From NCBI GenBank assembly GCA_944472135.2, contig OX235270.1, positions 86,809,168-86,873,167 on the forward strand: DNA of 64,000 bases, in the 5' to 3' direction. This document shows positions 1 through 63,078 of this stretch, piece after piece. How positions within the stretch are numbered: the first letter of the stretch is position 1; every line of letters starts with the position of its first letter. The position numbers were made by a program, and so were the translations under genes. The DNA comes from Trichobilharzia regenti. Taxonomy: Eukaryota; Platyhelminthes; Trematoda; Strigeidida; Schistosomatidae. The notes under the pieces are model-generated. The model did no database searches. It saw only the letters and a list, made by a program, of their open reading frames with translations, and had not been told where the DNA came from.

Positions 1-2585
1 CTCACACTTTTAACGGCCGAGTGTCTCAGTTGTAAAGAGAGATGAATCAAACTACCATGTAGTACATGCACATGTGCTTTGATTGATAGTTAGATATCAT
101 GTCCACGCTACACAAGCCTTTTGTATAATTGTTCAGATTCTGGGGGCAATCACTCAGTTGGGGCTGATACAACTAAGCGAAGTGGTTAACACTTTCCACC
201 ACTTTACCCCCTAACTTTAAATTATCAGTCGATGAAGACCAGTCCTGCAGCATCATCATGCATTTGACAAAGATGTATCACATGCAAAATACACCAAGAT
301 TTCTACTCGAGTTGTTCAGAATACTCTGTATTTTGTCAGCGTCTTCACTTAGAAGAATGTTATTATCTACTTAGTCTAAATCAGCAAAACTGCTCCTTGG
401 TAATAAGTCGATCTCTAAGTCCCTAAAGTCGACTAGAGTCATACCTGTCAGTACATCTATGATGAATTTAAACAACGATGAGCACAGTGAGTATCCATAA
501 CGGAAATTACTGGTTGCTATAACTTCAGATGACAAATCTCCGGAAGCTGTTACTTGGCTAAATGAGTTTAAATAAAGCGATTGCCTTGATTAGTGTAATA
601 TGCCTTCTCGGTACCCGTTCACACCTTGACCTTACCGCATCACTTTTCTGTCGTCTCAGTCGAATGCCACCTTGAATTGAAATATAGCAAGTGTTAAATG
701 CCACTAAGTTTTTCTATTTTCCATAATTCATCGGAGAGTGAATACGTAACCAATTCCGGCTCTCCGTAGCCTAAAGTATCCATAGTTTCCACCAGTTTGG
801 TACGTTTAGCCTCCACATCTTTATTGAAGCAAAAATTTTAACTAATTTTTTAGTCAGTCTTACTGTTCTCTGATTATCACAGTAAGACATATCTTCCTTC
901 TTATAAACTGAGATAACCAATTACTTATATCAGTCTAACGGAACTACCACTTATTTCCAGACATTACCTAATACCAACTGTTAGGTGCTTGGTAAATTTA
1001 TCTTGGTTGTAGGCATGTTGGACTGCCCTTCAATGTGTTCCCATCAAAGTCTCAGTCTTGAGAGATTATTAAAGTGTCATCCTCTTAGAAAATTATTTCG
1101 CTTTTAAAGTACATTTCCCTGAGGACTTTAAACAGTTATCTGGTGTTGACTTCTATCGATACGATTTCCGTTCCGTTGTTCTTTGTCTCCCATTACTGTT
1201 CACGGTCATTGATGAGACCTTTGCTCAGGTTGCATTTGAGCAGTTTTCGTACTTCGTCATGTTTGGAGCCCACCAGAATCGTTAGTATTGTGTCTTTCAG
1301 TTCAAATGAAGCGGCAGAAACCCACTGGCATCTGTTTATCTCTCCCTTCAGGCTATCAACAGCCTTTTTTACTGTCTCTATAGCTAGATATGTATTTTTT
1401 TCAGGCTTCCTCAAGATGTCTCACTGTCGGCTATTTATTGTCTAAAAATAAAGTCTCCCTGTTCTTGTCAAGAGGTAGCGGGTGCAAAGATTTTACATCT
1501 ACCTGCTTTTTATGTCCATTCAATCTTATTCTTATACGTGCACTGGCTGTTGGGTAATAGGAGCCCTTTTAGGTGTTCCAGAAGGAGCAGCAATCAACAA
1601 CTCATAGTTGTGTGATCCATTTGAGCCCATCGTTGATTTCATAATGAAAGTGGCCAGATGAGGCGATGTCTGCTTTTATGTTTGAAATAATTTCTGACGA
1701 GAAAAAAAGAATTATCAGAACAGCATTGTAGAAGACAACAACCATTATATTTCCCCTAAATATACTTTTCCGATAGACACAGCTTCTCTACTTGGGCACT
1801 GAAACCACTTGCTAAAATCACTTTATCTGAAAACGTTGCTTACGATGTAGGTGATTGGAGAGAGAAATAGAGTGGAGATTATGAAAAGACATAAATCAAT
1901 ATCACAATCTTCCCTTTTTCTCACGGATATGTTCATTTGGACAACACTCATTCCAATGTTTTCTTTTTTTTTTGATTACAGCTTGATTCCACACTGTGAT
2001 CTAGTCAAACGGCGATCTCTCTGCCCCAGCACTCAGTGCTATTCCTATACCTGCTAAAGGATCTCCTTACATCTGTAGGGTGAATTTAGCATATAAACCC
2101 TATTGTCCAGGTGGGATTAAGTGAATTGCCACCCTTGGGTCTGATATATGTGTTTCCAAAATACAACATGCATCCATAGTTCTAGATACCATAGTTATGG
2201 TTAGTAAAGCCCATTGTCCATTTTGGCAAACGGTCCTGATGTTGAATATACCAATATAAAGTTGGTAGTATGAAGAAAATCACCAGTGTTTTCCTGTTCT
2301 GATCATTATCAGCAGAGATAGGAGAAGGTGAAGAATTCGCTTTGGAATACTAGTAACAATGACAAGAAAGCGAGCAGATGACGACTGGTAAAGCTTGATG
2401 TATTTGTGTAGTTGCGTGGGTGGTTGTTATTTTCAAGCTGTCCAAACCGCGAAAGTTTATCTTTAATCGGAATACCTGAAACACAAAGAGTAGTAGTGTT
2501 GCGTAACCTAGTAGACCGGCAGACAACTGCTTGCAGCTGGCTATATACTGCCTGTTTACACTGGTCACTAAAGTTGTGTCCATAC
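1..2585 (-). mobile_element. RTE-like non-LTR retrotransposon, decayed, 3' part outside window
   Basis: Read on the minus strand, stop-riddled and frameshifted pieces follow the order of an APE endonuclease then a reverse transcriptase. The endonuclease start (LYIGIFNIRT) is near 2270, SETHISDP near 2130, QRWAQMDHTT near 1630, the linker ending INDREQ near 1195, and the RT piece FKFIIDVL near 460. Each piece has a clear counterpart in the plus-strand element at 22570-25985, including the 5' leader motif KQLSAGLLGYAT (KQLSPGLCGHAT there). Order and content are those of the RTE clade, to which schistosome SR2 belongs; the exact family name is inferred. It is not functional. Short reading frames in this interval are fragments of it, not host genes. 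Confidence 0.75.
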
Positions 2586-12688: not shown

Positions 12689-12787
12689 TGTAGCGGTAAC
12701 TATGGTCAACGCTACAATTTCAAATGTGCTAGTTGTCTGTCGACCCGCTTTAGTGAAGACAAACAAACTGACAGCCATTATTAAAAT
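12689..12787. promoter_or_regulatory. Possible bidirectional promoter between IFT81 and a small candidate gene
   Basis: Only 99 bp separate the IFT81 start codon (minus, 12688) from the plus-strand ATG at 12788. If both starts are right, the two genes share one short promoter region or have overlapping 5' ends. No TATA-like or other defined motif is evident, so this is inferred from gene spacing alone. Confidence 0.35.
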
Positions 12788-13222
12788 ATGCAGCAGAAGA
12801 AACGACAAAGGTTATCTTTGCCAAGAATCAGCTGTTGCCGTATATTTACTTCGAAGCGCTTGCCAAGTATTTCTGGGGCTGTCACTCGAGGCTGCCTTGT
12901 TACGTCTTTTGATTCCAATGGCCAATATCGTTTTTACAAGCTAGTACGAACCAAAGTGATTTCTTCGTGCTCATTTCTTGGTTTCAAAGTAAAGGTTCCT
13001 GATCCTCGGTAAAATCCCCTCAATTCATTTCTCCACTTTACTGTAATAGATTTGGTTAACGTACTCAGAGAGAAGATGAATTTTTGAAATAAATGTGTTT
13101 ATAAGCATAAATATATATACATATATGTGTAACAACGATATCAGTGAATAAATAGGTAGAGCTATCGGAAGAGGGGGATTGGCAGTAATAAAAGGACGCG
13201 TACAGGTACACACCCATTATTC

Positions 13223-19937: not shown

Positions 19938-22900
19938 GTATTTCGATAAATTTCAAACGAAATTATATTAAAGGTGTGTGAATATCTTGAAGGTATTTTG
20001 GGTAGACCTCTGAGAGCCTCTGATATGTATTGGGGTACGTTCATACTGCTACACTAATCTTTTTGGTTATTCCAGCTCTCTTGGCATGTAATGTTCTGAT
20101 ATACCTTGGTCTTAACAGCGCGTTTTCGTCTACCCTTCTTCGTTATTTCTGTAGCAGTCCATACGGGCGTGAGTAACTCTGATTTTAAAAGAATGTCTTT
20201 TTGCGTGTTATTTTTGATTTGAATGCAATATTTATTACTGCTTTTTGGTATACACATTGCAGTTTCGTTGACATATATTTACACACTCATGAAACTGAGT
20301 TCTACGAAATATTGTCGGTGTCGTAAAGTGGTACTGAATATATAGTATGTGCTTAAAAAAAGGGATTCTGCATTTTTTGGTTGCTACTACCTTTTCTATG
20401 CAGTGTAACTTGTGTTAGAAATTTGACTTCTAATCAGTCGGCTTTGAATTGAGTTTCAGTCACGTAGTTCCACATGACCTCATGTATCAAAGTCGAAGCA
20501 AGATAAACGTGATTTAAGTTTAAAACGGTATCGTTTTGTTTCACAGATTCTCATCAGCTTCATACTCTCTATGGTTGCGTTGGTTGTAAAGTCAGAAAGG
20601 GGAAACGAAACATTTCACGTGTCAAACCAATATCCCAAGTGTTGTAAATGAGGGAGTTCGGAATACGAAGTGATCAAATAGTTAACATTGTGAATTCTAG
20701 CTTAAGCAATTGTCGACTTTTATGTACAAAAATAAGTGTGATTATCTCTTCACCCCTTTAGTAAATGTATTTTGATTTCGTTTGGGTTTAATTGTGTATA
20801 CCTTTGTTTGACTCGCCAGCTGATATAGTTTAGTAATTTAGCATATTTGCCACATCATTTTTCGATTAAATTTGCGGTAGTTAACAGTATAAAGTTTCTA
20901 TGTGCAGCGAATTGTTATATTATTACTAATAATGTCAAAAGTAGTGGGAACAATCCACATTAAAAGAAAATCAAATAGTCTGCTTCACTTCGGCATATGA
21001 AAGCATAGGTTGACAGCTTGCTGTTGTAACTTCACAGTATGTCTGAGACGCACAGACCACAAATATTAAATTTCTGCTGATGGGCGTTCGCACAAACGAA
21101 ATGTTGATTCAAGGTTTTTCGCCTATTACTTTCCTCTAGAGTATTGCTTGGTTTTAGTGTGATCAATTATTTCACCCAGGTAGTTCAGATGCCATATTGG
21201 TTCGTGCCCTACACTCCGAGTTTCACATTTTGTTGAAACAAGCGATGGTTTTCTGGCAACTTGAATTGTCGCACTTATTTTTAAGTTCAGAGTTAGTCTG
21301 TGAGTCAGTGGCTAGAGCTGTGACATGCCGATTATTAGCTGAGTATCTGGATCGATAATCTGCGGTTTCATGAAGTAGTCTCTCCAGGTGTGGGTAGAAA
21401 AATTTAAGTTAATAAAAATCTGGATAACAAGATACTGTCAATGATTTCAAATGGTTTTGTCAATATTTTGTGTTGCACTTTGAGTGTGTGCAGTATTATT
21501 TTTCACATCATCTGAAAGTTGTTTCTGATTGATTCTTTTGTACCCTATAGATATTCTTATCAATAAATGTTTTATTCTGTAGCTACTCCTGTATTATCAA
21601 TGATACTAAGTGTGTTTTCGCACCGAAGTTTTTTCCATTTGGCTATTAATATGTATGTTCTACACAGTTTTGCACCATCCATAATTTCTCTAATTGGCGT
21701 TGAGGATTTTTTCAGTCTCTTCATTGCTGGTGGTAAGTTCAATCGACTACTATATTACTTTTAATGTATGTCTTTTTTGCGGGAAGCATTCACGCTTTTT
21801 TAATATTTTTTTTCCTTCACGTTCCCAAGTGGAACATAGAGTTCCAAGCTATTGGCTTGAAGTTTCTGTAGACTGTTGCTAGACTCATGCCCAACCTTTC
21901 CTCTTTACCAGAATTATTTCTAGCTTAGCGAGGTAAAGGCGTGCGTCGGGCGGAGATCGAACCCCGGACCATGTGCATGGTCGGCGAGCGTCCTAACCGC
22001 TATGCCACCGACGCATTCATGTAGTTATTCCATTATGCATATGCCATATCCAATCACTCTAGGTCTAGATGAAAAGGGTTAGAATGACTTGTGAATGTAT
22101 GATATGGAGACAACTTTGTATTTTAAAACAGTTTTGTGAGTATTTGTGGAAGTATGACACTAGGTTTCTGATCATGTATCGGTAGTCAGATGTTTATAAC
22201 ACTGGGTCATAGCTGGCACCGTTATAACGTTAGTATGGTATCAGACAAGTGAATTTAAAGTGGTTGGAAGATTTCATCATGAGCTGACATCAGTTAGAGA
22301 ACCATTGGAAAACCCGAAAGTACTGGGCAGCCGTTTCGTCCTAGTTTGGGACTTTTCAGCAATGGTTGCAAAGCTGCTACCTTGATGTGGTGGTCGGGCT
22401 TAAACACTGCAATGACCCAACAAGCTATACTGGCTGAGACTTATGTCTCTTGAGGTCTGCCATGCCAGAAAGGTTGTTTGGATAGTGGTTAGACAAAAAG
22501 CAGCTACCCAATCCGATACTATGATTAAAACAAATTCACAAAATATCATGCCGGATCGGTCGGGGCTCGGAATTAACAACAACCGCGCTTCCTGCTACCG
22601 TTTCACATGGCAGAAGTGATAAATATGCTATTGAGACACACTAAACAGAAAAGAACAAACAAAAACAGGCCGCGTGTGACCGGCCTCAAGCAGTTGTCCC
22701 CTGGGCTCTGCGGTCACGCAACCAACTTCCACGGTGTGGCCAGCCGGGAAGTAACAATCGCCCACACACTTCCGAAAGCACATGAAGCCTTCCTGAGCAT
22801 CATCCCCCTTCACTCACATCACCTTTCTCATCTTGCTTCTCTTCTACAGTTAGCACTATTCCGCAGGCTAATGAGTCATTTTCACTTCACTCTGTGACCA

Positions 22901-25900: not shown

Positions 25901-28900
25901 CAGATGCATCCACTCCTTGAGACTTATGATTTCCAATGAAACTGTTTTGTTCTTCGTTATTATTATTTCTTTGGCTCACACCCGTGTTTACTGTCTAGTA
26001 TGAATTTCTTCTACTTTCTCCTCTTTCTTTGTGTGTGCTACAAGGAGGGAGTGTGGCGACTTGAACTGCCGCACATATGTGCAAAGTTCTATGTCGAAAA
26101 CAGACAGACAGACAGCAATGGTTGTCTAACTGATGTAGCTCATGATGAGATCCTACAACAAATCAAACAAAATCCCTACAATAACCAATACTTGAAAATA
26201 AGTTAAAAATAATCTACATTAATGGAGAACATACTTTCTATAACACCTAACAGTATTTGATTTTTAACCTCTGTAGGGTTACCTTGACCAAACGTCAGTG
26301 GAGATACAAAAGGTCGTTTTTCACTCACTAACTTGCTCCACAAAGCTTGATAGCTGACTGTCTATCAAAAGGCGTGTATACTGTGCAACAGCTCCCTCTA
26401 CTAGATATTATAATGGTCGAAGGCAAGGTAATGGAATCTTTATTTTGAGTTTGATACCTCCATATAGACAATGAATGGCTCTCAACAGATACTTGGAAGC
26501 TTGAAGAACAGATGAGGATTTAAAGAGATGACTTAATGCAACGATGGGCAACGGAAGGAGAAGCTAAGTTCATTGTACACTGCACTGAATAAAGAAGTGA
26601 AGAAGAGTGCTAGGAAAGACAAAAGACAATTATACGACACTGTCGGCTGAGGCAGAACATTTTATAGGATAACCAGATATCTATCCAGGTGGAGATCACC
26701 ACAGGTAATGAAAACAATAAATGATGTTCAAGTGAGCCTGATTACGAAAGAGGAGAAAGAAATAAAACAGTAGGCTGATCACTTCAAAGGACTCTTGAAT
26801 CGACCATCACCTGCAACTTGCCCAGAGATACCATCACTACCAACATTACACACACAACTGCCTGACAGTGTACACCAATCCTCCAACAAAAGCAGAAATC
26901 TTGAATGCGATCAAGCTACTGAAGTCCAGGAGGGAAGGCAGCAAGACCGGACGGAATCTCTCCCGAAGCACTGAAAACGGACCCAGAGGCTGTGGTAGAT
27001 GTGCTCACACCATTATTACAAAAGGTTTGGAAGGAAGGAAAGGTGCCAATGGATTGGAAGAAAGACTGGCTACCTCGTCAAGCTGCCAAAGAAGGGCGAC
27101 GTAGTTAGGTGTGTGCAAGAACTGGCGTGGAATAATGCGTTCGAAGTGAATAGAGGAGTAAGACAAGCTGACTGTCTATGATCACCGAGGATATTCTTAA
27201 TTGTGGTGTACTGACTGGATTATGCGTCAGACTGTGCTTGGGAGTCAGGAAACGGGAATACGCTATACTACAGATAGTAAGATTCTAGAAGATCTGGATT
27301 TCACAGATTATTTATGTTTAATTTCACACAAAATCGAAGACTTGCAGGCAAATATCAACAAACTAGCTGGAGAGGTTGACAGCGAACACGGGACTCCAGG
27401 TGGACATAGAGAAGATGCAAGTGATAACCAACCACCACCACCACCACCAACAGCAACAACAACCAGAATCAATCATCATCAACGAGAGAGATTTGACAGA
27501 GTTTACTTCCTGCCTTCTCTCATTTGGCCAGGAAGCACCATTTCAACAACAGGCAGTCAGAACTGATGAAGATGTCAACGCCAGCCAAAATCGGAAAGGC
27601 AAGATACGCATTCATCAAGCTAAAACCAGTTGAGAAATCTGCCCTCCGCCTCAGCATAAAGAACAAGATTCGGATTTTCAACACGTGTAAAGTCAGTCAG
27701 TTAGCGCTTCTATACGGGTGAGAAACTTGCACTGCGTGTCAGCCCCTTCCACTGGCCCCATATTAAAGATCAAATGGCCAGAAAGAATTAGCAACAAGAA
27801 ACTCATCAGTGGAACAAACCAACAGGCAAGAGCCGATAGCTCAACAAATATGTAGGAGAAAATGGAGATGGATCGGGCATACGTTGAAGAGGCTGTCGAA
27901 TGACATCGAGCGCCGGGCCTTCGAGTAGAACCCGAATGGGAAGCGATGAGTGGGTCGTCGGTGCGATGGTGACATGGGGGAGATCGTGTTGCGAGGAAGA
28001 GGAGATGAGAGATTGTGGGCAATCGTGGACCCAGATGAAGGGGACAGCAGAGAATAGAACAAAATGGAGATGTGTTGTTGAGGCCGTATGTTCCATTCAG
28101 AACCCAAGGGAATAATAATAATACTATATATACCTTATCTTGAAATCGTCATTTGCACAGATCTTCTGTGTTGTGCTACTTCTGCCCCTTTGTATTGTGT
28201 TTCTTTGTCTTCTTTTAGTGTCTCTCGCGTTTCTCCGTAACACTGGTTCATTTACTCTCCTTGATGCCAAGTCTATCACTCTGCCATTTGATATTTTTGT
28301 GCTGATGAATGTTTCTTTATATACGAATGATAAATCTTGTTAGCAGCACACGCCACAAAATCAGTCATCACTGAAAGTGGGAGAAAGAAAGAAATTAAAT
28401 ATTTCTGACCATAAGTGCTTTCGTTAATTTGTTATTTTTAGATGGAGCAAAGTGATGAATAATGACGAAGATAAAGAGCGAAAACTAATGGACACTGTGC
28501 AGTTCTATCTGTCTGGTTTGTTAAAGAGCGCTTTACGCAACCCAAGTGACTGCCATCCTCGACAAGCAACGGTAGTTGCAGTAGAACAATATTGAAAAAG
28601 AATCGGGGGTACTTATAACAACGTGTTGTTTATACGACTGCTTAAGAATCAGTGTTTGAAGACTCTTGGTGACATGGTTCATCATCAGTCACTCGCACTG
28701 GTATAGTCACTACTGCTACTATATGTCTACTAATCTCCACTTAATTTTCCTCTTTCCCGTACATTCATGTTCGTCGTAGTTTCATCACAGTTCATCTCTC
28801 CACTTTTATCTGTGCTTTTCTGGCATGTTGCAATATGCGGTGACTCACTTTCTGCTAAATTCCAGGTTGTTAAGTCTGTCAGTAGGATTTCTCTCACCCA

Positions 28901-38139: not shown

Positions 38140-38445
38140 TGACATTATTCCTAGCCTAATTATACTAACTATATTGCACCAATTAACACAGGAGGTGGAA
38201 TTCAATCACATTCGACTCAAGGATTTACTATGTTCCGTTGGATTTCTTGTTGGTCAAATAGAAGGTGTTTGGTATTCATTCTTCTTAAATTCTCGATAAG
38301 TTTGACCACTGTATGTTGCATCACAGTCTGAGCATTTTAGGCATGGTAGTGTAGTTACTAGAACGACTTTACAGCAACTCGAAGAACATACATTGGTCGA
38401 TATTAAGCGATTTGACGATTCAGTTGACAAAATATATAAACCCAT
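38140..38445 (-). mobile_element. Penelope-like GIY-YIG fragment
   Basis: The minus strand reads CLKCSDCDATYSGQTYREFK near 38280-38340, the Cys-rich turn and YxGQT motif of a Penelope-like GIY-YIG endonuclease. Only this fragment is present, joined to an RTE-like fragment. Confidence 0.5.
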
Positions 38446-39021
38446 AATTTTAAGAAACGACTTATCCGTTTTAAGGATCTGGATCGAAGTACGTTTCAGT
38501 TCACTTGCTCTGATACACTCTAAGATTAAATCTGCATATAGTTATCCAGTTTTCATCTACTAATATTTTGTGTTGACAGTTTTGAAGAGGTGCAGCAGTA
38601 TACTAACTCAAGGAATCCAGTATCTTATTTAAAGGTTCTGAAAAATTATGCAAGACAACACCGCTCATGTGAACACATACACTAACGCTTTGAATTTTTA
38701 GTATGTGATGAATCACCTATTTGTTCCATTGATTTATTTTACTACTGAAAAAAGCTGTGCATTGAAATCAAATACTGATTACTATTTCGTCGCTAATCTG
38801 TAAGCATAATTCTATAATTCAAAGGTATGACAGAAGTTTGTATGTTAGTTTGGTAGTGAGACTTCCATGATATGAGTTTGATTCATGCGATCGTGGATTA
38901 CTTAATTTAAAAACAAAACAAAACAAGAAAAGGGTTCTGGAGTTTATTATCGATTACTCTGAGAAATAGTAGAAATACATATTTTGAAATAGATTGTTCA
39001 CATCTCATATTCTTAACTCAG

Positions 39022-48500: not shown

Positions 48501-51500
48501 AACTAAAGAAAACAAACAGCTTGTAGTTCATCTGCTTAACTCGCGATACATAAAATTTTTTAAGATGCAACTTAATAATTTTTTCTTTCTGAAGAGAAAA
48601 CTTCCAGTATGACTGGACCATGTCATAAGGGGAGGCCATAATGCTCACTTCACATGGAGTAACATTTAGCAGTTTTTTACAAACATTTTCACTTTGTAAC
48701 AATAGATTTCACGGTTTCGTGTCAGATGATCAGCCATACCTACTAGATGTTGGAGGTAACTTCATCTGATTGGTTGCACACAGGTGAACAGAGTGACCAA
48801 CAGGTCGGAGGTTGGATACTCAGCTAGATAAACTGTGAATACATGCTTCATCAACAAATTTGCCTAGTTCACATCTACATGACTAACTTTCAGTGTTTTC
48901 ATGACTGTTTGATGATCAACCAGGTGCATTAGAATGGCAATCACATTCAGAATAATTGCGTTCTAACTAAGTGAGTTTGCATACTCCCCTTTTCTTGATC
49001 ACGATGTTTACTCTGTTCAGAATTTTTGAAACAAAAATACTAGTACTAGTGTTATACGAAGACAGCCCACTTCGATTTCTCACAATAAATAAGAGTAGTC
49101 AAGCGACCGCGTTAAAAAGATCTAGCCAGTTAGAACAAGTTCTGTGTCAATGTATCTACGTGTCTTCTAAATTAAAAGTAAAGTAAGCATGAAAAGGTCA
49201 TATCATTTCAAAACTAAATGAAGAATATTCGGCTTATGAAATCTGTGAAGAGTTAGTGAAACTTCACTAAGTCGACTGATTGATATACCACTGAAACAAA
49301 CAACCGCTATTCATACCTTTCTTTTCTTAACATACGTTTACGGGTTCCAATCTCAGAAGGGACATGAGTTCCTTCAAGGTTGCAGATATGCCTAGCTGAC
49401 GAGTGCCAACTAGCACGAAACCTAGGTCCAAGACTTCCTGCCAATCGCCTCCAACTGTCTAACATCATACGTATATTCAATTGAAGGTAACTGCAAGACG
49501 CAGGTTTTGTATGTAGTAAAACAAGGGGTATTACATCTAATAAGAAACTATACAGTCCTGGGTTTGAATGTACATTTAGTATTGAATACCAAGGACTCTG
49601 TAACTATCCAATGTCTTTTAGTTCTTAAAAGTTCTTTAACTGATAAAAGTCTGTTAGAAAGGACACAGCTGATGTGCAATGACCACTTAATATAATAAAT
49701 ATAAAGAGATAATTCATTTCAAAACATTCATGTACCTTATTATTCGTGTTTCTTCTAAACTGGTTAAAATGATCACGTATTTCACTTATGGGCGTTTCTT
49801 TATCTGATAACAGAAAAGGAAAGAAAGAGACAGTTATTAGAATGCTGGTCAACACATAAGTGTTAAATTCAGGAGGATTTTCTTTTTGAATTAGTGGAAA
49901 TGAAAGTGTGATACTTCACAGTTTTAACATAAGTATCAGAAATGTGGAATTTTTAATTTTTTTTAATAGCCTATCTGATTCGTACTGGTTGTACATCATG
50001 AAGGGGAATAATTAATAATCTCTAGGTCGTGAGGTAATGTTAAAACATCACTGAAAATGATTCCATGATAAACGCAACTAAGTTATGAAATCTTTTATTT
50101 AAAGTGAATGGCTTGGATAATTGTGAACTCCCAACTCTAAGTATCAGATTTGTCAGTATTTCAGATTATTAAAAGAATTTATGAATTTTTTCTCAAAATG
50201 TTATCATTTACAACTCAGAAAAACTGTTGGTCCACTCTATCGACACCGCTAATATATCCACTATTCATCAATACTAAATGGAGAGCGTCTACAATCCATA
50301 TGCAGCTTTTTCCTATTCCCTTACGTTCTCAATGGAACATAAGGCTTCAAGCTAGAGATTTGAAGTTTTGGGTAGCAGTGGTTTTTATTTTTACGGGAAG
50401 CGGTCGCTAGCCTCATGCTCAACCTTCCTTCTCTGCCAGTCTTAATACTACTAGCTTAGCAAGGTAAAGGAGTGCGTTTGCCGGGAATCGAACCCTGAAA
50501 AACATGCTTGGTTGGTAAGAATTCTACTGCGCACTTGTATGCAGCCTACATAGACCTAATTGTACTACAAGTGACCAATTCTTGATAGTTGTAAACAATC
50601 ATTTTAGCCGTTTTAGTGATATTTCGTAGATGAGGTTAGTGTTCATTCTTATTTCTAGCTGAGTGAGTTCTGCACCGGCGCGAAATATTACACACAATCA
50701 CTTTTCTGGTTACCAGAAGTTATAATTCAGCTGGCGTATTGATGAGTGATAAGAGTGCGTAGACAAGAAGCAAATGTAAGGGCTAAATAAGAGTATTACT
50801 TTATTAAATTCAGATAGAAAATCTTAAGTCACTGCAGCTCACACTTTGCATCATACAGTGCAAAGTGATATTGTTATCTATATATAAATAATAACTCGAC
50901 AGACTTTTAAAATTGATCATGAGTGCTGAGTTGCGTCTTCACTTACCTCCAACTACGCCAAACGCGTTCACAAACAAAATTACGAATGAAAATAAGACGG
51001 ACAAAAATTTCCCGAAGAATTTTAATTTTTACAAAAATAGTTAACACAGTCTTCCTGATAAGGATGTTAATGAAGGTATCTAGATTGATAGTGTAACTTC
51101 TGCGATTAAATATAAAAACCCAAAGGTGGTCCAAAAAAATCATAACTTCTTTCCGTGTTTTGCTATGGAGAATTAACAGATATTCAGTCTGACGTGTGTC
51201 TCAGTGTTTGATTGAAGATTATGTTAAGAAATGTTAAAATGCATGAAGTATTGTAATTTTAGAAGACCAATTTCTATTTCACTTGGAAATAAATATCAGT
51301 AAAACAAAACTTCTACAATGCTGTCTCTGGGCTAGCGCCTAAAATAAGCATAAACGCTTACGTGGTCCAAGTGGCTACTTGAACATCTTTATCATTCAAA
51401 TGGCTTGTCAAAATCTTATTGAATATTTTTTGCATAACTCAGTGGATTAAAAATAAATTGGTATTCTAGTTCCAGTTACAGGAAAACATCATGTATTGTG

Positions 51501-52809: not shown

Positions 52810-53480
52810 ATCAAAATGGAACACTTACCCTCATAGTTTTATAAAAGAGAAAAAAGAGATCCTTCTGTAGCTCTGTGCTGGAACACCTAATTGAATCTAG
52901 ACACCAAGCTAGCCCACAAAAAAAACTTCAAAGTTATCTACAAAATACGTGGGGATCTCGCTAAATTAGTACGAATCAAACTTCTTCAAACCTCAGAAGC
53001 AATGGCAATTCAAATGTTAAATCCTGAACTCTGTCTACAAAAGTAGTTTGTTCAGTCATTAAATCTACAATGGACCTGATCTATCTTAACACTACGTAAT
53101 TTTTGTTTTTTGTTTCTTAATTGCATCATTTTCTTGCCCCACTCCCTATTAAATCTCTACTCATTATTACCACTGTTGTTAACCTGACTCTCGTTCAAAT
53201 CGTGGTTAAATTCTACTGAGCCCTGTCAGTTATACTACATCACTCAACTTACTTATTTAGTTTTATTCTAGTTTCTACCTGATTAACGATTTCTACGTTA
53301 CGTAGTTTATTATCGAAAGATTTACAATTCTGCTGACACATTTTTGGAAATATCCCTTTTGTAGCCAAGATAATTTACTACACATATACGATTGTACGGC
53401 TTGAGAATGACATCGCCGAAAAGAGTAACTCTTTGCTGAACGTCTTTTTTTGTATCTAGTAAACTGCGGGTTATCCACAA
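52810..53480 (+). mobile_element. Penelope-like element remnant, second copy of the 6.9-7.8 kb family
   Basis: Pieces FYKREKRDPS and EAMAIQMLNPELCLQK near 52840-53045 match FYEAEKRP and KAMAIHMLNPQLYIEK at 7150-7350. The tail near 53380-53430 (gtacggcttgagaatgacat) matches 7700-7720. Many stops; it is dead. Confidence 0.6.
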
Positions 53481-56309
53481 GCGGCAACATTCATGCTGTC
53501 GGACATCTTAGTTTTTATGCATTCATTGACACTCTCATTCCGTGAGCATGCATTCTCTTTTGAAAAATATGAAGAATTGTCACATTGTGTGTTGCTACAA
53601 CTGATGTTACCATACAGGTTGAAGAGTAGTCCTTATCTTCGTGTGACCATGGAAGGTAAAGTTTTTTCTTCTGCATCATGCGAATTGGTATGAACAATGA
53701 TCAAAATCAAATTTGTACGAAATCCCTTGATTTCTACACACTAACTGGCTCCTTAATTAATTCGGTCAGTATTTATCTGACACTTCTGGAGTCAAACTTT
53801 AAAACTATGTTGCTTTGTCTCATTTTAAAGTGAATACTGCTTTCGCAAAACAAGTTGGAACGACTGCTAATTACATCTGATTTCATTCCGAATAAGGTTG
53901 AATGGCGAGCGAATTCAGTGCATCCGAACTGCATATTAATGCATATTGTCCTCGGGTCCAGAAGTTTCTGTGGTGAAGACACTGAATCTCCATCCCCCCT
54001 AAACGACAGACAGTTACTGCTCACGCCATTTTCTATTTATTTAACGGTTGTTTCGAAGAATTTTTCATTTAGCTTGCTATTTCCTCTACTTTTGAGATGT
54101 ACCGATCTTTTCCGAATGAAGCCACGGAAATCTGTTGGATTTTACTGCCCTCTGGCCAAAGATTATCGACCAGTTCCACCTCTGTTTATGCATCAAACTG
54201 GATAAGATGCTAATCTTCTGAGGAAAGAATATTGGTATCATGCTTAGTATTTGGTTATCTCCTCACCAAATACAAACTCAGTCTTTTCATAAATAAGGTA
54301 GGGGTTAAAAGACTTCATAACTCTATTTTATGGTTTATTTGCTTGCGGACAAACGTGTAGAAATTGGTGTGCAGGTGTTCCAGAAGTATCAGTAGGCTTG
54401 AGGGTTCATTTGTACACATCTGGGTGGTCACCAAATAAGTGAATGACTGGTTTCAAATAGAACTTTGCACCGATGTGGAGCAATTCAAGTCGCCACACTT
54501 CACTCACCACACGAAGCCAGATAAGCAACACAAAATTGAGACAGTAAACAGAGGTATGAGGCAAAAAGTAATATTGAAGAGCAATATATATATAGTCACA
54601 ATGAGGCCACGACCTCACATTTCAGAAGCAGGCGATTACTTGGATAACATTGTAGGAGGTGATCACTGCTGTTGGTTCGCTGGCTTGCAACTTCACAAAT
54701 ATTTAGGTTTACTACCCGAAAGTTAAATACCATACTCATTTTACATTCTATCTCCCAGCAGTAGGAAGTGAATTTCACTCCTCTGTCACATTGTAGACAA
54801 TCTTCACTATTATGACAACTGCTTTTAGCACAATGATTATTTGTCCACTTTTTCTGGCATAAAAGGACTTGTAGGAACAATTTTCTTAACCAGCATAGCT
54901 TGCTGGATTATTGTGAAGTGCAAACCTATCTAATTATTAGTCTTGATTTTAAAGGACTACTCATAGAAGAACAAATTAAAGGCCTGAAATCGATTCTAAT
55001 CCTCTTGATTAGTTTTTCGCTGTAGATTGATTCTCACCTGAAGTACTTTCAGTAATTCTAGCTTTTAGCAATATGTTTATATAATATCAAATTTACAGGT
55101 TTAAAAAAGTCTGCTATACGCATATAGACATCTCATAAGTGCTGGTTTGGTAAAGATGAAGTCAGTATTTCTCTGGTAAGTTAAAAAAAGACCATTTTAC
55201 ATAATGCTTTCCATATATGTTTCTCTTATTCAAGAGGTCCTTATTATCAATGAATGATCTATTATTCCAATCACAAACAAGTAAGAGAAAGTAAGAATAT
55301 TTCTGTACTTTATTTAACCCCTTAATTTCGTTTACTCAATTGTATTTTAATTCCTTCTTTTATGTATATTGATACTTTATAGCAGTCAAAACGCATATGT
55401 CCATTCTTAAGTTCAATATAATAATAATAATAATTTACAACTGAGTTATGTCTTATTTCAAGGTTATACATCTCACTCATTTTGAGTAGAGTATTGTTCA
55501 ACTTGAAGACATGAAAAATAAGAAAAATTTCACTTTTTTGTTCAATTGTTTATTTTCATAGTTTGTACAGAATTGTAAACTATTGTACTTCACTTTTGTT
55601 ATATATGCCTACTAGATTCCTTTCACTGAGATCATAAAAGGAAGCCTACAAAAATGTAGTCAAAGAGCATAACTGATGAGTTGTGTAAGTGTTCATCCTA
55701 TTTGATGAAATACTACCAAGACCAGCGTAGGTAATAAAGCTAAAAGATGGCCGACACAGGTGTGTATAAACAGCGCAGCATTTTATTTGTTAAAATTTAT
55801 CTTGATAATTATTTTTATTTATTCTTTGTTTATTTCCTCAACAATTTATCCTTTTTGTTTTTTTTGACTCTCCTACTTGCTTTTTGTTTACTCTCGTCTG
55901 TTTTGTCTTCTTGTTTTATTACCAAATGATAAATTGATATAATAGTCAGAAATTAGGTCAGTGAAAGCTTAAATTAAACAATAAATTGACGAAGTTGAGC
56001 TTGTCACTTTTTGTGAAAAAAAACAGTCTCTCTGATAATGTACATTAGAATAGTGCCAAAATAAAGCGATTGTGAAACTAAATTATTTTATTTTTCAAAG
56101 AAGAGTTTACAAATGAATTATTAAGAAGACAATTGCAGTGAAGAAAATTTTCTTTTCGACGAAGTCATCATCTAGGCTGTAAATTCGTGTATTTATATCA
56201 AATGGATGGGAAAGTTCCAGAATAATTTCCGGATAAGGGTCAAATTAATAAAAATTAAAATTAGGAATTAGAATACCATAATAAACAGGGAGATGGATAA
56301 AACAATGGT
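53481..56309. other. Intergenic; no gene recognised
   Basis: Plus-strand frames at 53855-54205 and 55747-55929 show no family signature. A segment near 54440-54590 (minus) repeats 25990-26110. About 56220-56309 resembles the DNA right of the array (see 61700-61890). Confidence 0.4.
54440..54590 (-). repeat. Dispersed repeat segment, also at 25990-26110
   Basis: The minus strand reads gtgtggcgacttgaattgct and gcaaagttctatttgaaa, closely like the plus strand near 26050-26100. Confidence 0.45.
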
Positions 56310-56328
56310 TTCGAATCCCGGTGGGTGC

Positions 56329-56374
56329 GTACTGCTGAGGAGTCCCAAACTAGGACGAAACGGCTGTCCAGTAC
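56329..56374 (+). ncRNA. Type I hammerhead ribozyme with minimal helix III (14 copies in array)
   Basis: Helix I is GTACTG (56329-56334) paired with CAGTAC (56369-56374). The core box CTGAGGA (56335-56341) fits CUGANGA. Helix II is GTCC/GGAC (56342-56345, 56353-56356) with a 7-nt loop. GAA plus A (56357-56360) follows. Helix III is only two pairs, AC/GT, with loop GGCT (56362-56365). Cleavage is predicted after C56368 in the triplet GTC. Every residue of the conserved core is present. Further GGG/CCC pairing outside helix I is possible. Identical copies recur every 400 bp (56729, 57129 and so on to 61129) and at 61528. Short helix III hammerheads are known in schistosome and Penelope-related retroelements. 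Confidence 0.93.
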
Positions 56375-56654
56375 TCCCAGGTTTTCCAGTGGTTCTCTAA
56401 CTGATGTCAGCTCATGATTAAACCCTCCATGCAATCAAACAAAATCCCTACAAAAACCAATACTTGAAAATTCATCTGATGCTCACTAGTGACTGGCCCT
56501 ATTCAGGCAGTTAACCTGGGGTTCTAGTGGGAAGCCGTGACCAGTAGGGTACAGCAGGTCGAAGATGAGGCAGTAACTCATCGAAGAAGACATTGCGAAG
56601 TGGTCTCGCTATGTCGTGAACTGGCAGAAGTTAGAATTCAAGGACCATTGGATC

Positions 56655-56728
56655 GGGTCCCAGTGGCTCAATGGTCTACGAGCTCGCCTTGTAACCAGAA
56701 GGTCCTGGGTTCGAATCCCGGTGGGTGC
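56655..56728 (+). promoter_or_regulatory. tRNA-like RNA polymerase III internal promoter of the unit (13 full copies)
   Basis: A box TGGCTCAATGG at 56664-56674 and perfect B box GGTTCGAATCC at 56708-56718 have tRNA-like spacing. An anticodon-loop-like CTTGTAAC lies between them. The segment recurs every 400 bp, so each unit could start its own transcript just upstream of its hammerhead. One unit (near 59864) has a G to T change in the A box. Confidence 0.85.
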
Positions 56729-59700
56729 GTACTGCTGAGGAGTCCCAAACTAGGACGAAACGGCTGTCCAGTACTCCCAGGTTTTCCAGTGGTTCTCTAA
56801 CTGATGTCAGCTCATGATTAAACCCTCCATGCAATCAAACAAAATCCCTACAAAAACCAATACTTGAAAATTCATCTGATGCTCACTAGTGACTGGCCCT
56901 ATTCAGGCAGTTAACCTGGGGTTCTAGTGGGAAGCTGTGACCAGTAGGGTACAGCAGGTCGAAGATGAGGCAGTAACTCATCGAAGAAGACATTGCGAAG
57001 TGGTCTCGCTATGTCGTGAACTGGCAGAAGTTAGAATTCAAGGACCATTGGATCGGGTCCCAGTGGCTCAATGGTCTACGAGCTCGCCTTGTAACCAGAA
57101 GGTCCTGGGTTCGAATCCCGGTGGGTGCGTACTGCTGAGGAGTCCCAAACTAGGACGAAACGGCTGTCCAGTACTCCCAGGTTTTCCAGTGGTTCTCTAA
57201 CTGATGTCAGCTCATGATTAAACCCTCCATGCAATCAAACAAAATCCCTACAAAAACCAATACTTGAAAATTCATCTGATGCTCACTAGTGACTGGCCCT
57301 ATTCAGGCAGTTAACCTGGGGTTCTAGTGGGAAGCCGTGACCAGTAGGGTACAGCAGGTCGAAGATGAGGCAGTAACTCATCGAAGAAGACATTGCGAAG
57401 TGGTCTCGCTATGTCGTGAACTGGCAGAAGTTAGAATTCAAGGACCATTGGATCGGGTCCCAGTGGCTCAATGGTCTACGAGCTCGCCTTGTAACCAGAA
57501 GGTCCTGGGTTCGAATCCCGGTGGGTGCGTACTGCTGAGGAGTCCCAAACTAGGACGAAACGGCTGTCCAGTACTCCCAGGTTTTCCAGTGGTTCTCTAA
57601 CTGATGTCAGCTCATGATTAAACCCTCCATGCAATCAAACAAAATCCCTACAAAAACCAATACTTGAAAATTCATCTGATGCTCACTAGTGACTGGCCCT
57701 ATTCAGGCAGTTAACCTGGGGTTCTAGTGGGAAGCCGTGACCAGTAGGGTACAGCAGGTCGAAGATGAGGCAGTAACTCATCGAAGAAGACATTGCGAAG
57801 TGGTCTCGCTATGTCGTGAACTGGCAGAAGTTAGAATTCAAGGACCATTGGATCGGGTCCCAGTGGCTCAATGGTCTACGAGCTCGCCTTGTAACCAGAA
57901 GGTCCTGGGTTCGAATCCCGGTGGGTGCGTACTGCTGAGGAGTCCCAAACTAGGACGAAACGGCTGTCCAGTACTCCCAGGTTTTCCAGTGGTTCTCTAA
58001 CTGATGTCAGCTCATGATTAAACCCTCCATGCAATCAAACAAAATCCCTACAAAAACCAATACTTGAAAATTCATCTGATGCTCACTAGTGACTGGCCCT
58101 ATTCAGGCAGTTAACCTGGGGTTCTAGTGGGAAGCCGTGACCAGTAGGGTACAGCAGGTCAAAGATGAGGCAGTAACTCATCGAAGAAGACATTGCGAAG
58201 TGGTCTCGCTATGTCGTGAACTGGCAGAAGTTAGAATTCAAGGACCATTGGATCGGGTCCCAGTGGCTCAATGGTCTACGAGCTCGCCTTGTAACCAGAA
58301 GGTCCTGGGTTCGAATCCCGGTGGGTGCGTACTGCTGAGGAGTCCCAAACTAGGACGAAACGGCTGTCCAGTACTCCCAGGTTTTCCAGTGGTTCTCTAA
58401 CTGATGTCAGCTCATGATTAAACCCTCCATGCAATCAAACAAAATCCCTACAAAAACCAATACTTGAAAATTCATCTGATGCTCACTAGTGACTGGCCCT
58501 ATTCAGGCAGTTAACCTGGGGTTCTAGTGGGAAGCCGTGACCAGTAGGGTACAGCAGGTCGAAGATGAGGCAGTAACTCATCGAAGAAGACATTGCGAAG
58601 TGGTCTCGCTATGTCGTGAACTGGCAGAAGTTAGAATTCAAGGACCATTGGATCGGGTCCCAGTGGCTCAATGGTCTACGAGCTCGCCTTGTAACCAGAA
58701 GGTCCTGGGTTCGAATCCCGGTGGGTGCGTACTGCTGAGGAGTCCCAAACTAGGACGAAACGGCTGTCCAGTACTCCCAGGTTTTCCAGTGGTTCTCTAA
58801 CTGATGTCAGCTCATGATTAAACCCTCCATGCAATCAAACAAAATCCCTACAAAAACCAATACTTGAAAATTCATCTGATGCTCACTAGTGACTGGCCCT
58901 ATTCAGGCAGTTAACCTGGGGTTCTAGTGGGAAGCCGTGACCAGTAGGGTACAGCAGGTCGAAGATGAGGCAGTAACTCATCGAAGAAGACATTGCGAAG
59001 TGGTCTCGCTATGTCGTGAACTGGCAGAAGTTAGAATTCAAGGACCATTGGATCGGGTCCCAGTGGCTCAATGGTCTACGAGCTCGCCTTGTAACCAGAA
59101 GGTCCTGGGTTCGAATCCCGGTGGGTGCGTACTGCTGAGGAGTCCCAAACTAGGACGAAACGGCTGTCCAGTACTCCCAGGTTTTCCAGTGGTTCTCTAA
59201 CTGATGTCAGCTCATGATTAAACCCTCCATGCAATCAAACAAAATCCCTACAAAAACCAATACTTGAAAATTCATCTGATGCTCACTAGTGACTGGCCCT
59301 ATTCAGGCAGTTAACCTGGGGTTCTAGTGGGAAGCCGTGACCAGTAGGGTACAGCAGGTCGAAGATGAGGCAGTAACTCATCGAAGAAGACATTGCGAAG
59401 TGGTCTCGCTATGTCGTGAACTGGCAGAAGTTAGAATTCAAGGACCATTGGATCGGGTCCCAGTGGCTCAATGGTCTACGAGCTCGCCTTGTAACCAGAA
59501 GGTCCTGGGTTCGAATCCCGGTGGGTGCGTACTGCTGAGGAGTCCCAAACTAGGACGAAACGGCTGTCCAGTACTCCCAGGTTTTCCAGTGGTTCTCTAA
59601 CTGATGTCAGCTCATGATTAAACCCTCCATGCAATCAAACAAAATCCCTACAAAAACCAATACTTGAAAATTCATCTGATGCTCACTAGTGACTGGCCCT

Positions 59701-61699
59701 ATTCAGGCAGTTAACCTGGGGTTCTAGTGGGAAGCCGTGACCAGTAGGGTACAGCAGGTCGAAGATGAGGCAGTAACTCATCGAAGAAGACATTGCGAAG
59801 TGGTCTCGCTATGTCGTGAACTGGCAGAAGTTAGAATTCAAGGACCATTGGATCGGGTCCCAGTGTCTCAATGGTCTACGAGCTCGCCTTGTAACCAGAA
59901 GGTCCTGGGTTCGAATCCCGGTGGGTGCGTACTGCTGAGGAGTCCCAAACTAGGACGAAACGGCTGTCCAGTACTCCCAGGTTTTCCAGTGGTTCTCTAA
60001 CTGATGTCAGCTCATGATTAAACCCTCCATGCAATCAAACAAAATCCCTACAAAAACCAATACTTGAAAATTCATCTGATGCTCACTAGTGACTGGCCCT
60101 ATTCAGGCAGTTAACCTGGGGTTCTAGTGGGAAGCCGTGACCAGTAGGGTACAGCAGGTCGAAGATGAGGCAGTAACTCATCGAAGAAGACATTGCGAAG
60201 TGGTCTCGCTATGTCGTGAACTGGCAGAAGTTAGAATTCAAGGACCATTGGATCGGGTCCCAGTGGCTCAATGGTCTACGAGCTCGCCTTGTAACCAGAA
60301 GGTCCTGGGTTCGAATCCCGGTGGGTGCGTACTGCTGAGGAGTCCCAAACTAGGACGAAACGGCTGTCCAGTACTCCCAGGTTTTCCAGTGGTTCTCTAA
60401 CTGATGTCAGCTCATGATTAAACCCTCCATGCAATCAAACAAAATCCCTACAAAAACCAATACTTGAAAATTCATCTGATGCTCACTAGTGACTGGCCCT
60501 ATTCAGGCAGTTAACCTGGGGTTCTAGTGGGAAGCCGTGACCAGTAGGGTACAGCAGGTCGAAGATGAGGCAGTAACTCATCGAAGAAGACATTGCGAAG
60601 TGGTCTCGCTATGTCGTGAACTGGCAGAAGTTAGAATTCAAGGACCATTGGATCGGGTCCCAGTGGCTCAATGGTCTACGAGCTCGCCTTGTAACCAGAA
60701 GGTCCTGGGTTCGAATCCCGGTGGGTGCGTACTGCTGAGGAGTCCCAAACTAGGACGAAACGGCTGTCCAGTACTCCCAGGTTTTCCAGTGGTTCTCTAA
60801 CTGATGTCAGCTCATGATTAAACCCTCCATGCAATCAAACAAAATCCCTACAAAAACCAATACTTGAAAATTCATCTGATGCTCACTAGTGACTGGCCCT
60901 ATTCAGGCAGTTAACCTGGGGTTCTAGTGGGAAGCCGTGACCAGTAGGGTACAGCAGGTCGAAGATGAGGCAGTAACTCATCGAAGAAGACATTGCGAAG
61001 TGGTCTCGCTATGTCGTGAACTGGCAGAAGTTAGAATTCAAGGACCATTGGATCGGGTCCCAGTGGCTCAATGGTCTACGAGCTCGCCTTGTAACCAGAA
61101 GGTCCTGGGTTCGAATCCCGGTGGGTGCGTACTGCTGAGGAGTCCCAAACTAGGACGAAACGGCTGTCCAGTACTCCCAGGTTTTCCAGTGGTTCTCTAA
61201 CTGATGTCAGCTCATGATTAAACCCTCCATGCAATCAAACAAAATCCCTACAAAAACCAATACTTGAAAATTCATCTGATGCTCACTAGTGACTGGCCCT
61301 ATTCAGGCAGTTAACCTGGGTTCTAGTGGGAAGCCGTGACCAGTAGGGTACAGCAGGTCGAAGATGAGGCAGTAACTCATCGAAGAAGACATTGCGAAGT
61401 GGTCTCGCTATGTCGTGAACTGGCAGAAGTTAGAATTCAAGGACCATTGGATCGGGTCCCAGTGGCTCAATGGTCTACGAGCTCGCCTTGTAACCAGAAG
61501 GTCCTGGGTTCGAATCCCGGTGGGTGCGTACTGCTGAGGAGTCCCAAACTAGGACGAAACGGCTGTCCAGTACTCCCAGGTTTTCCAGTGGTTCTCTAAC
61601 TGATGTCAGCTCATGATTAAACCCTCCATGCAATCAAATAAAGTAGCATCATAATAATTAAGAAGATTGACATTGTGCAATTAGGGGTTAGAAATGTAG

Positions 61700-61890
61700 A
61701 AATAACAAAATAGGCAGGATGTTTGGATAAAAACTAATGTGATGAATAATTGTTTATGCAATCATGGATTAAATATGTAGAAATAGTAAAATGACAAAAT
61801 AAACACGAAGTTTTGGTATGAAAATATGGTAGTGTAAACAGGGATTAAGAAAAACTTAAAATAACATGAATAAACAGGAAGTTTAGATAA
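61700..61890. repeat. Degenerate 70-80 bp repeats flanking the array
   Basis: Phrases like gtagaaatagtaaaatgac, aaataaacaggaagtttag and gataaa recur loosely two or three times here. A similar phrase (ataataaacagggagatgga) lies just left of the array at 56280-56300. The array may have expanded inside an older low-complexity repeat. Confidence 0.45.
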
Positions 61891-62037
61891 GAAAGGAGAT
61901 GGGATGGTCATCACTAAAAATTACCTGTTTATGATGGCCATGGCAAGGACAGGGGTTGTACGTATTTCTTTTGTATGCAAAGCGTGGGTTTGAGCTTTTG
62001 TATAGCTAGTGTCTCGGCTATGCCCAGATGTCTTGAT

Positions 62038-63078
62038 TTAACTTCCTTTTATATTAATTAATTTGAAGGATTTTTCGAAAGGCACTGAATGTCCTGAATT
62101 GACCAGATATTCTGTCACTGAACTGTATACACGCTTTTGGTCTCCTTTTACTAACCAGGCTGGGTAGTGTTCACGAGCGCGTTTTTCAAGTCGGCGCATG
62201 GTACGCCCAACGTACTCAGCTCCACAAGAGCAAGTAAACTGGTATATGCACGTTGAGGTCGCCCAATGCAACAGCTTGTCTTTCGCGTACTGGCTGAACA
62301 GTTTCTTGCAGGCAAACGTCAGTCGTAGGCTCGCGGCGAAGTATGTTTTCCTCAGGGATTTGGAGAGGCGTTTCCGAAGGATTTCTGCTTCAATATTACC
62401 TTTGAATTCTAGATTAAGCAGAAGTATTTTCTTTGGGACGGATTGAACTTGTTCGGGAGTCTTCTTAGATTTGAAATTTTTGTCTATGAACCTGGGCGAG
62501 AAACCGTTTTCCACTAGGGTTTTTCGATGATTATGGAGTTCTTCTTCAACCACTTCCTCGCTGCATATCTTGCAAATCCTTGAGGATAGAGAGTATATCA
62601 GGTTCCTCTTTCTGCTCAGCGGCACGAAGCTTTGAAAGTTGATGAATTGTCGATTCCATGTAGGCTTATTGTATATGGACCTTTTCAGAGTGTTGTTGGC
62701 GTTTCTTGTCAGATGGACGTCGAGGAAGTGGAACATTCCGTCGGATTCAGTCTCAAGTGTAAAGTCGATGTTTAGGCGGGCGTTATTGAAGATTTGAAGT
62801 AGGTTTTTTAAATCACAATTCTCATCACAAATAATGAAAGTATAATCGATGTATCTACTGTAGAGATGGAAGTCGTTGATAGTTGGTGATAAGGCGTTGT
62901 ACTCTAAGCTAGTCGTAAAGCAGTCGGCTAGGAAGGGTCCTAAGGGAGAACCCATTGCTACCCCATCTACTTGCATGTATATTTCCTTGTTGAAACTTAA
63001 GTATAAGTTGGAGGTGCATCGAAGTAACAGTTCTTTTAGGTAATGGATCGGTATACCGACATCGATGCCAGTGGATTA
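62038..63078 (-). mobile_element. Penelope-like element, 5'-truncated RT plus GIY-YIG endonuclease
   Basis: One open minus-strand frame of about 345 codons runs from near 63078 (no start, truncated) to 62038. It opens with TGIDVGIPIHYLKELLL, then QVDGVAMGSPLGPFLAD (RT fingers/palm) and the catalytic region RYIDYTFIICDE. The typical motif is YxDD, so the second Asp is replaced by Tyr and polymerase activity is probably lost. FHFLDVHLTR and a basic linker follow, then the GIY-YIG nuclease with the Cys-rich IYQFTCSCGAEYVGRT and EKRAREHYP. The long uninterrupted frame despite truncation suggests a recent insertion. It lies about 400 bp right of the hammerhead array. Confidence 0.88.

What the first reader, a model, noticed from the sequence alone, without database searches (positions are those of the whole stretch)
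56310..61638. Near-identical 400-bp tandem array in which every full unit carries a tRNA-like promoter and an apparently functional hammerhead ribozyme
Fourteen ribozyme cores and thirteen complete tRNA-like promoters are read directly in the sequence. A multimeric transcript would cut itself into 400-nt monomers, and each monomer could also be initiated by its own polymerase III promoter. Hammerhead-bearing SINE satellites are established for schistosomes (Sm-alpha), so the class is known. The 400-bp unit with its 55-bp linker and the extreme homogeneity at this locus are the parts worth checking as new. The layout would suit a self-processing RNA, possibly circularised, that reseeds itself through reverse transcription or extrachromosomal DNA.
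Basis: partly seen in the sequence, partly recalled or inferred. Interest (0 to 1): 0.85.

Follow-up and report, generated by a model that had tools for sequence, protein, structure and literature searches.

The report
Ribozyme satellite inserted by Penelope-type copying
A 400-letter repeat that carries an RNA-cutting ribozyme sits in this flatworm-like genome as arrays whose ends bear the marks of a Penelope-type copying machine, which suggests that a whole satellite array can be made in one event from a small RNA circle.

Summary
The array is real: window 56306-61634 (right edge ambiguous to about 61643), 13.3 units of 400 bp, 3 substitutions and 1 deletion, 14 Rfam type I hammerheads. The class is known: Sm-alpha-like elements and animal non-LTR retrozymes; hammerhead satellites of 399-403 bp are in print for S. 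mansoni (W26.2, W27.2). In the 39 best-scoring loci of the same genome, 3' ends fall at two sites of the unit, about 67 and 103, 36 nt apart (55 of 62 arms). Of 25 two-armed (head-to-head) loci, 20 have one arm ending at each site and none has both arms at one site. 30 of 38 loci have target-site duplications; targets are AT-rich. This is the 'tail' signature of Penelope-like elements (PLEs), and a resident PLE shows two end clusters about 37 nt apart. Arms run through the ribozyme cut site. In one double array all 34 covering units, on both arms, share two private variants. I conclude that arrays enter whole, by PLE-type target-primed reverse transcription of continuous, probably circular, hammerhead RNA. 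The driving PLE family is not identified; no RNA or enzyme was tested.

The parts
56306..61634 (+). Array of 13.3 units of 400 bp, one-armed insertion; 5' end at unit about 336, 3' end at unit 67 (right edge ambiguous to about 61643)
56369..56768 (+). Reference unit: position 1 is the base after the predicted ribozyme cut; unit position = window position minus 56368
56329..56374 (+). First of 14 type I hammerheads (others at 56729, 57129 ... 61129, 61528); predicted cut after C56368
56664..56674 (+). A-box-like sequence of the first full unit (unit 296); 12 exact plus 1 mutated in the array
   Evidence: motif recalled
56708..56718 (+). B-box-like sequence of the first full unit (unit 340); 13 exact in the array
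   Evidence: motif recalled
56382..56385 (+). TTTT, possible polymerase III stop, 14-17 nt past the cut site; 14 in the array
56436..56471 (+). Tail: the 36 nt (29 of 36 A or C) between the two 3' end sites, unit 67 and unit 103
56110..56305 (-). Left flank: pseudo-LTR region of a PLE copy, PLE unit 469..274
61632..63077 (-). Right flank: same PLE copy, PLE unit 279..1733, with the reading-frame piece 62038-63075; its first bases overlap the ambiguous array edge
49390..49434 (+). Diverged solo hammerhead, 45.3 bits
8425..8794 (-). Old, nearly full-length relative of the unit, 74% identical
22265..22361 (-). Fragment of the unit, 90%, 3' end at unit 61 by one alignment
26116..26199 (+). Fragment of the unit, 87%, 3' end at unit 103

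Best explanation
The array is a non-autonomous hammerhead retroelement (Sm-alpha-like; an animal retrozyme) that entered as a ready-made multimer. Proposed cycle: transcripts are cut by the hammerhead and closed into 400-nt circles (inferred). A PLE-type endonuclease/reverse transcriptase makes a staggered cut in AT-rich DNA (seen as target-site duplications and AT bias). The exposed DNA ends prime copying at two internal sites of the RNA, about 67 and 103 nt after the cut site (seen as element ends). The enzyme runs through the cut site and round the template many times (crossing and variant pattern seen; the circle inferred). When both DNA strands prime, two outward-pointing arms are joined head to head, one using each site. 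The window array is a one-armed case inside the pseudo-LTR of a PLE copy.
For: 39 loci of the own genome, 38 independent. 3' ends near 67 (60-77) or 103 (94-107): 33 of 38 plus arms and 22 of 24 minus arms, in windows that cover 32 of 400 positions. Two-armed loci: 19 of 24 use one site each, 0 of 24 the same site twice, 5 of 24 have at least one arm elsewhere. The one then unread arm (L022, minus) was fetched afterwards and ends at 103, as the rule says: 20 of 25. Target-site duplications in 30 of 38 loci at p <= 0.05 against 200 random placements each. First 10 flank bases 80% AT against 62% background, 36 loci, 0 of 2000 resamples as high. Minus arms: 23 of 25 cross the cut site, 0 of 25 end within 2 nt of it. 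L022: variants at 196 and 272, in no other locus read, are in 23 of 23 and 11 of 11 covering units of its two opposite arms, with no partly shared variant. The window array has a private variant at 55 in all covering units. Arms of 5 or more units: 0.09-0.32% between units, against 1.13% between loci. Resident PLE: 12 of 14 ends of 11 copies at 454-461 or 491-497, and both two-armed copies with both ends in view use one each. Published PLE biochemistry and genomics match: two internal start sites, both strands cut, 30-40 nt tail, head-to-head pLTRs, 8-10 bp duplications (PMC11167929, parts 1-2 of 4 read; PMC3846280, passages).
Against: No similarity between unit 18-110 and the resident PLE's end region (score 9.5 against shuffle mean 9.95, p 0.58), so the driver is unknown. 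In a second sample of that PLE only 10 of 18 readable ends lie at 457-465 or 489-493 (8 of 18 in the windows set in the script, 450-463 and 486-500); 8 lie elsewhere. The PLE frame itself has a Pfam RT hit but no GIY-YIG hit; the endonuclease is read from alignment with a relative that has one. Five of 25 two-armed loci do not fit the two-site rule; L026's arms are 594 bp apart. 8 of 38 loci have no significant duplication, the window array among them (3-bp overlap only). L042's plus-arm variants at 394 and 73 are absent from its minus arm, and only 8 of 25 two-armed loci share rare variants uniquely between arms, so two RNAs are often possible. Four two-unit arms differ between units by 1.25-2.47%. 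L021 and L043 carry a C3 change in both ribozymes. Older copies: 11 of 25 ends in the (slightly wider) windows. Loci were chosen by score, not at random.
Confidence: 0.66

Rival explanations
1. The template is an uncut linear multimer transcript of an existing array, not a circle; PLE-type insertion otherwise the same.
For: Arms cross the cut site. L021 and L043 have a C3 change in both ribozymes. Four two-unit arms are heterogeneous at 1.25-2.47%. For the Anolis PLE, ribozyme mutants did not change insertion in vitro (PMC11167929).
Against: A 23-unit arm would need a transcript of 9.3 kb or more left uncut at 23 ribozymes; all 34 covering units on both arms of L022 share two private variants. 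A homogeneous source array could still mimic this.
Confidence: 0.2
2. Single units inserted and then grew into arrays by unequal crossing-over or gene conversion, as in ordinary satellite DNA.
For: Tandem arrays of very similar units are typical of satellites. L039 and L042 each have one variant shared by only some units (4 of 13 and 4 of 17).
Against: Opposite arms of L022 share private variants; partly shared variants are nearly absent in the long arrays read; insertions of 1.2-16.5 units share the same end sites.
Confidence: 0.07
3. An ordinary tRNA-derived SINE moved by a LINE, with L1-like twin priming behind the inverted arms.
For: A and B boxes, SINE label for Sm-alpha in print, duplications at insertion sites (PMC2770079).
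Against: Two 3' ends 36 nt apart without a poly-A or short-repeat tail at the ends read; both arms of a pair end outward at a 3' site, one at each, whereas twin priming (recalled) leaves an inner breakpoint at the outer end of the inverted part.
Confidence: 0.04
4. Assembly artefact: arrays and inverted pairs are misassembled.
For: Inverted and tandem repeats are hard to assemble; no reads were available here.
Against: Duplications flank the composites and one arm ends at each site in 20 of 25; misassembly has no reason to make either.
Confidence: 0.03

Closest known systems
Sm-alpha and the hammerhead W-element families W36.2, W25.2, W26.2, W27.2 of Schistosoma mansoni (PMC8490949 sections 11-12 and passages; PMC2770079 and PMC2576457 passages)
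   Same: tRNA-like A and B boxes followed by a type I hammerhead; tandem arrays; unit length of W26.2 (399-402, 400) and W27.2 (403); dispersed full and partial copies.
   Different: W36.2 (Sm-alpha) is 333-335 bp. Sequence identity to W26.2/W27.2 could not be tested. In the passages read, that paper reports one case of direct repeats/TSD and leaves the mobilisation mechanism open.
Animal non-LTR retrozymes (PMC7229834, PMC7761336, passages)
   Same: Non-coding tandem repeats of 150-450 bp with a canonical type I hammerhead, duplications longer than 4 bp, proposed circular RNA template, PLEs named as strong candidate movers.
   Different: There PLE mobilisation is argued from co-occurrence, shared type I hammerheads and tandem copies; here the ends, paired arms and tail are read in the genome. 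No RNA was tested here.
Penelope-like elements: Anolis PAc, Adineta Pen2a (PMC11167929 parts 1-2 of 4; PMC3846280 passages) and the resident 2916-bp PLE (L060)
   Same: Two start sites 30-40 nt apart giving an optional tail, head-to-head copies with the tail on one, short duplications, AT-rich targets, tandem copies.
   Different: The unit encodes no enzyme, has a tRNA-like promoter and a full Sm-alpha-type ribozyme, and shows no sequence similarity to the resident PLE's end region.

Membership tests
Animal non-LTR retrozyme | Canonical type I hammerhead in a 150-450 bp tandem repeat | tested here: met
Animal non-LTR retrozyme | No protein-coding region; G+C under 50% | tested here: met
   Longest open stretch in the unit 90 aa, no coding evidence; G+C 49.5%
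Animal non-LTR retrozyme | Target-site duplications longer than 4 bp, when present | tested here: met
   30 of 38 loci, matches of 7 bp or more; two are AT repeats. The window array itself has 3 bp
Animal non-LTR retrozyme | Expressed as linear and circular RNA | not testable with these tools
   No RNA data
Sm-alpha (W36.2) | A and B boxes upstream of a type I hammerhead | tested here: met
Sm-alpha (W36.2) | Unit of 333-335 bp | tested here: not met
   400 bp
W26.2 / W27.2 hammerhead W elements | Sequence identity over the 399-403 bp unit | not testable with these tools
   Sequences not in the text held; unit strings not found in the paper library
Element moved by a PLE | Two 3' ends 30-40 nt apart (tail) | tested here: met
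   55 of 62 arms at about 67 or 103
Element moved by a PLE | Head-to-head arms with the tail on only one | tested here: met
   20 of 25, none with the same site twice
Element moved by a PLE | AT-rich targets and short duplications | tested here: met
Element moved by a PLE | Shared end sequence with an autonomous PLE of the genome | tested here: not met
   One PLE family tested, p 0.58; other families could not be searched
LINE-moved tRNA SINE | One 3' end with a poly-A or short-repeat tail | tested here: not met
Penelope-like element (resident L060) | RT plus GIY-YIG endonuclease | tested here: inconclusive
   RT hit 44 bits; no GIY-YIG hit of its own; a 40% identical relative (P0103) has RT and GIY-YIG above cut-off in columns where L060 keeps the Y, G, T, R, R, H residues

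The most novel reading that the evidence does not exclude
A satellite array can be born in one transposition event: a PLE-type enzyme primes from both strands of one staggered cut at two neighbouring sites of a self-cut, re-closed 400-nt RNA circle and runs round it dozens of times, leaving arrays of up to 34 units (13.7 kb in L022) that look like slowly grown satellite DNA.
Probability: 0.5. Interest if true: 0.85.

Novelty: new variant of a known kind. Interest (0 to 1): 0.62.

Why it matters
What moves hammerhead satellites in animals has been open, with PLEs proposed mainly from co-occurrence. The paired insertion ends seen here turn that proposal into something that can be tested in any long-read genome. 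They also offer a simple reason why some satellites appear as homogeneous arrays and as inverted pairs: the array may be the direct product of one copying event.

Tried and rejected
Local satellite growth: rejected as main cause because array ends fall at fixed sites, mostly with duplications outside. Linear cut monomer as template: rejected, 0 of 25 minus arms stop at the cut site. Origin of the unit's end from the resident PLE: not supported. Rfam hammerhead in the resident PLE: no hit up to E 10 in L060; I saw a loose hammerhead-like stretch there by eye and do not claim it. Substitutions at the junction nucleotide as a mark of an odd ligation bond: seen in one locus only (L039). Both arms always from one RNA: not supported (8 of 25; L042). 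Phage, plasmid and viral-contig searches with the unit or its core: no match. Species: a protein search with an IFT81 exon gave one unnamed hit. The PLE frame's named relatives among the 120 listed are mostly flatworms (Dicrocoelium, Schistosoma, Trichobilharzia, Paragonimus, Sparganum/Spirometra), none over 58% identical. A blood fluke is my inference from the Sm-alpha-like element and eight large contigs (911 of 954 Mb). Older hammerhead subfamilies and a second PLE family could not be searched because the genome search stopped answering.
Full report
What is there. The window holds one array of 400-bp units at 56306-61634, with 14 type I hammerheads. Unit position 1 is the base after the predicted cut (56369 in the window). 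A-box-like sequence at 296, B-box-like at 340, ribozyme core 367-400, a TTTT run at 14. The array is inserted, antisense, into the pseudo-LTR of a Penelope-like element: the left flank matches PLE unit 469..274 and the right flank 279..1733. Read against the PLE, the empty site gives a 3-bp overlap (CAA), and the right edge is ambiguous over about 10 bases shared by unit and target. Related copies lie elsewhere in the window: 8425-8794, 22265-22361, 26116-26199 and a weak one at 9019-9171.

The same element across the genome. The window lies on C8 of a 954-Mb assembly of 548 contigs. A search with the unit had 819 first-look candidates, of which 39 were scored, with 177 matches, not all of them listed. 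I fetched the 39 loci; one is the window array (L047), and L024 has the same arms as L023, so 38 count as independent. Insertions have variable 5' ends but 3' ends at two places: unit about 67 (..CCATGCAAT) and about 103 (..ACTTGAAAAT). By class, 18 and 15 of 38 plus arms and 7 and 15 of 24 minus arms; others 5 (34, 35, 32, 47, 237) and 2 (365, 387). The two windows cover 32 of 400 positions.

Head-to-head pairs. 25 loci have a minus arm before a plus arm, both ending outward. Of the 24 readable at first, 19 used one site on each arm, 0 used the same site twice, and 5 had at least one arm elsewhere. In L026 the arms are 594 bp apart rather than abutting. Two more fetches found that arm ending at 103 after 23.2 units, as the rule says: 20 of 25. 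The whole L022 insertion is 9273 + 4455 bp.

Target sites. 30 of 38 loci have a flanking duplication at p <= 0.05 against 200 random placements each; matches may include chance bases, and L013 and L045 are AT repeats. The 8 without are L019, L022 (left end not in that fetch), L025, L026, L027, L031, L039 and L047. By eye the L022 flanks share a 7-bp repeat. The first 10 bases outside the 3' end are 80% AT against 62% further away, in 36 loci (L022, L024 and L026 left out).

The template. Plus arms were mostly the ones found by the search, so I use the minus arms, of which L010's is itself the one found. 23 of 25 cross the cut site and none of 25 ends within 2 nt of it; among all 63 arms one does, L031. 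The template was therefore continuous across the site. In L022 two variants found in no other locus read are in every covering unit of both arms, 23 of 23 and 11 of 11, and no variant is shared by only some units. The window array has a private variant at 55 in every covering unit; its other fixed variant, at 238, also occurs in L009 and L010. L039 and L042 have three and four fixed variants and one partly shared variant each. Within arms of 5 or more units, units differ by 0.09-0.32%, against 1.13% between loci (2037 arm pairs, L024 included). One small circle copied round and round fits this best. Against a strict reading: L042's minus arm lacks the variants at 394 and 73 that its plus arm has; four two-unit arms (L017 minus, L023, L026, L029) are heterogeneous at 1.25-2.47%; L021 and L043 carry a C3 change in both ribozymes. 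146 of 158 units with a complete core are intact.

The machine. A resident PLE of 2916 bp occurs in tandem copies; the first look listed 99,272 candidate places, of which 117 were scored. Of 14 ends read in 11 copies, 6 lie at 454-461 and 6 at 491-497; the other two are in L058. The window copy L048, three extra pieces in L055 and the pieces running off L057 and L059 are left out. In a second sample of 20 copies, 18 ends were readable: 7 at 457-465, 3 at 489-493, 8 elsewhere; the script's preset windows, 450-463 and 486-500, held 5 and 3. The two two-armed PLEs with both ends in view (L052, L054) use one site each. The frame has an RT domain; its relatives are flatworm proteins and metagenome proteins, one of which carries a GIY-YIG domain over the same columns. 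PMC11167929 (parts 1-2 of 4 read) shows for an Anolis PLE that copying starts at two adjacent internal sites in an AC-rich stem loop, that both DNA strands are cut and extended, and that the stretch between the sites is the genomic tail. PMC3846280 (passages) describes head-to-head pLTRs with a 31-bp tail and duplications of 8-10 bp. The unit's 36 bases between its sites are 29 of 36 A or C. The unit does not resemble the resident PLE in sequence there, so the driving family is unknown.

What is known. Hammerhead satellites of 399-403 bp, with ribozymes tested in the sister families W25.2 and W36.2, are in print for S. mansoni (PMC8490949, sections 11-12 and passages). Retrozyme papers propose circular RNA and name PLEs as candidates (PMC7229834, PMC7761336, passages). 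Searches that join retrozymes or hammerheads with Penelope listed 20, 14 and 20 papers; by titles and abstract starts none reports these insertion ends. I opened five of them (PMC11167929, PMC3846280, PMC7229834, PMC7761336, PMC8490949). The library lacks most subscription journals.

Limits. No reads, no RNA, no named species. The loci are the best-scoring ones, hence young and long. Older copies blur: 11 of 25 ends lie in slightly wider windows (58-77, 94-108).

Noticed in passing
window 31179-35381 (+): LTR-type retrotransposon: gag-like frame (DUF7083), RT, RNase H and integrase domains in three consecutive frames separated by stops.
   Followed up: no
window 12401-12811 (-) and 29424-29738 (+): Host gene exons: an IFT81 calponin-homology domain and a rhomboid domain.
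   Followed up: partly
window 38254-38541 (-), 6542-7213 (+), 52819-53073 (+): Pieces of other PLE-like reading frames: the last two are 31-39% identical to the resident PLE; the first looks like the end of a PLE endonuclease by eye only, with no Pfam hit.
   Followed up: partly
L039 (G000:C1:21397600-21407000): The base just 5' of the predicted cut (unit 400) is T instead of C in 4 of 13 units, scattered; possibly copying errors at a ligation junction, or chance.
   Followed up: partly
L009, L012, L027, L032, L043: Other hammerhead insertions also lie in or near PLE-like reading frames; no test against PLE abundance was made.
   Followed up: no
G000:C1:40962047-40974727, C3:12272182-12281946, C5:50709107-50715955: Whole PLE copies in head-to-tail series with a 2916-bp period.
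   Followed up: partly
plus arms of L029, L030, L032: A possible third 3' end at unit 32-35 (3 of 38 plus arms).
   Followed up: no
L055 3680-3763 (+): Near-threshold Rfam match to mir-3492 (43 bits, gathering 44) beside a PLE; a weak one also in L060.
   Followed up: no
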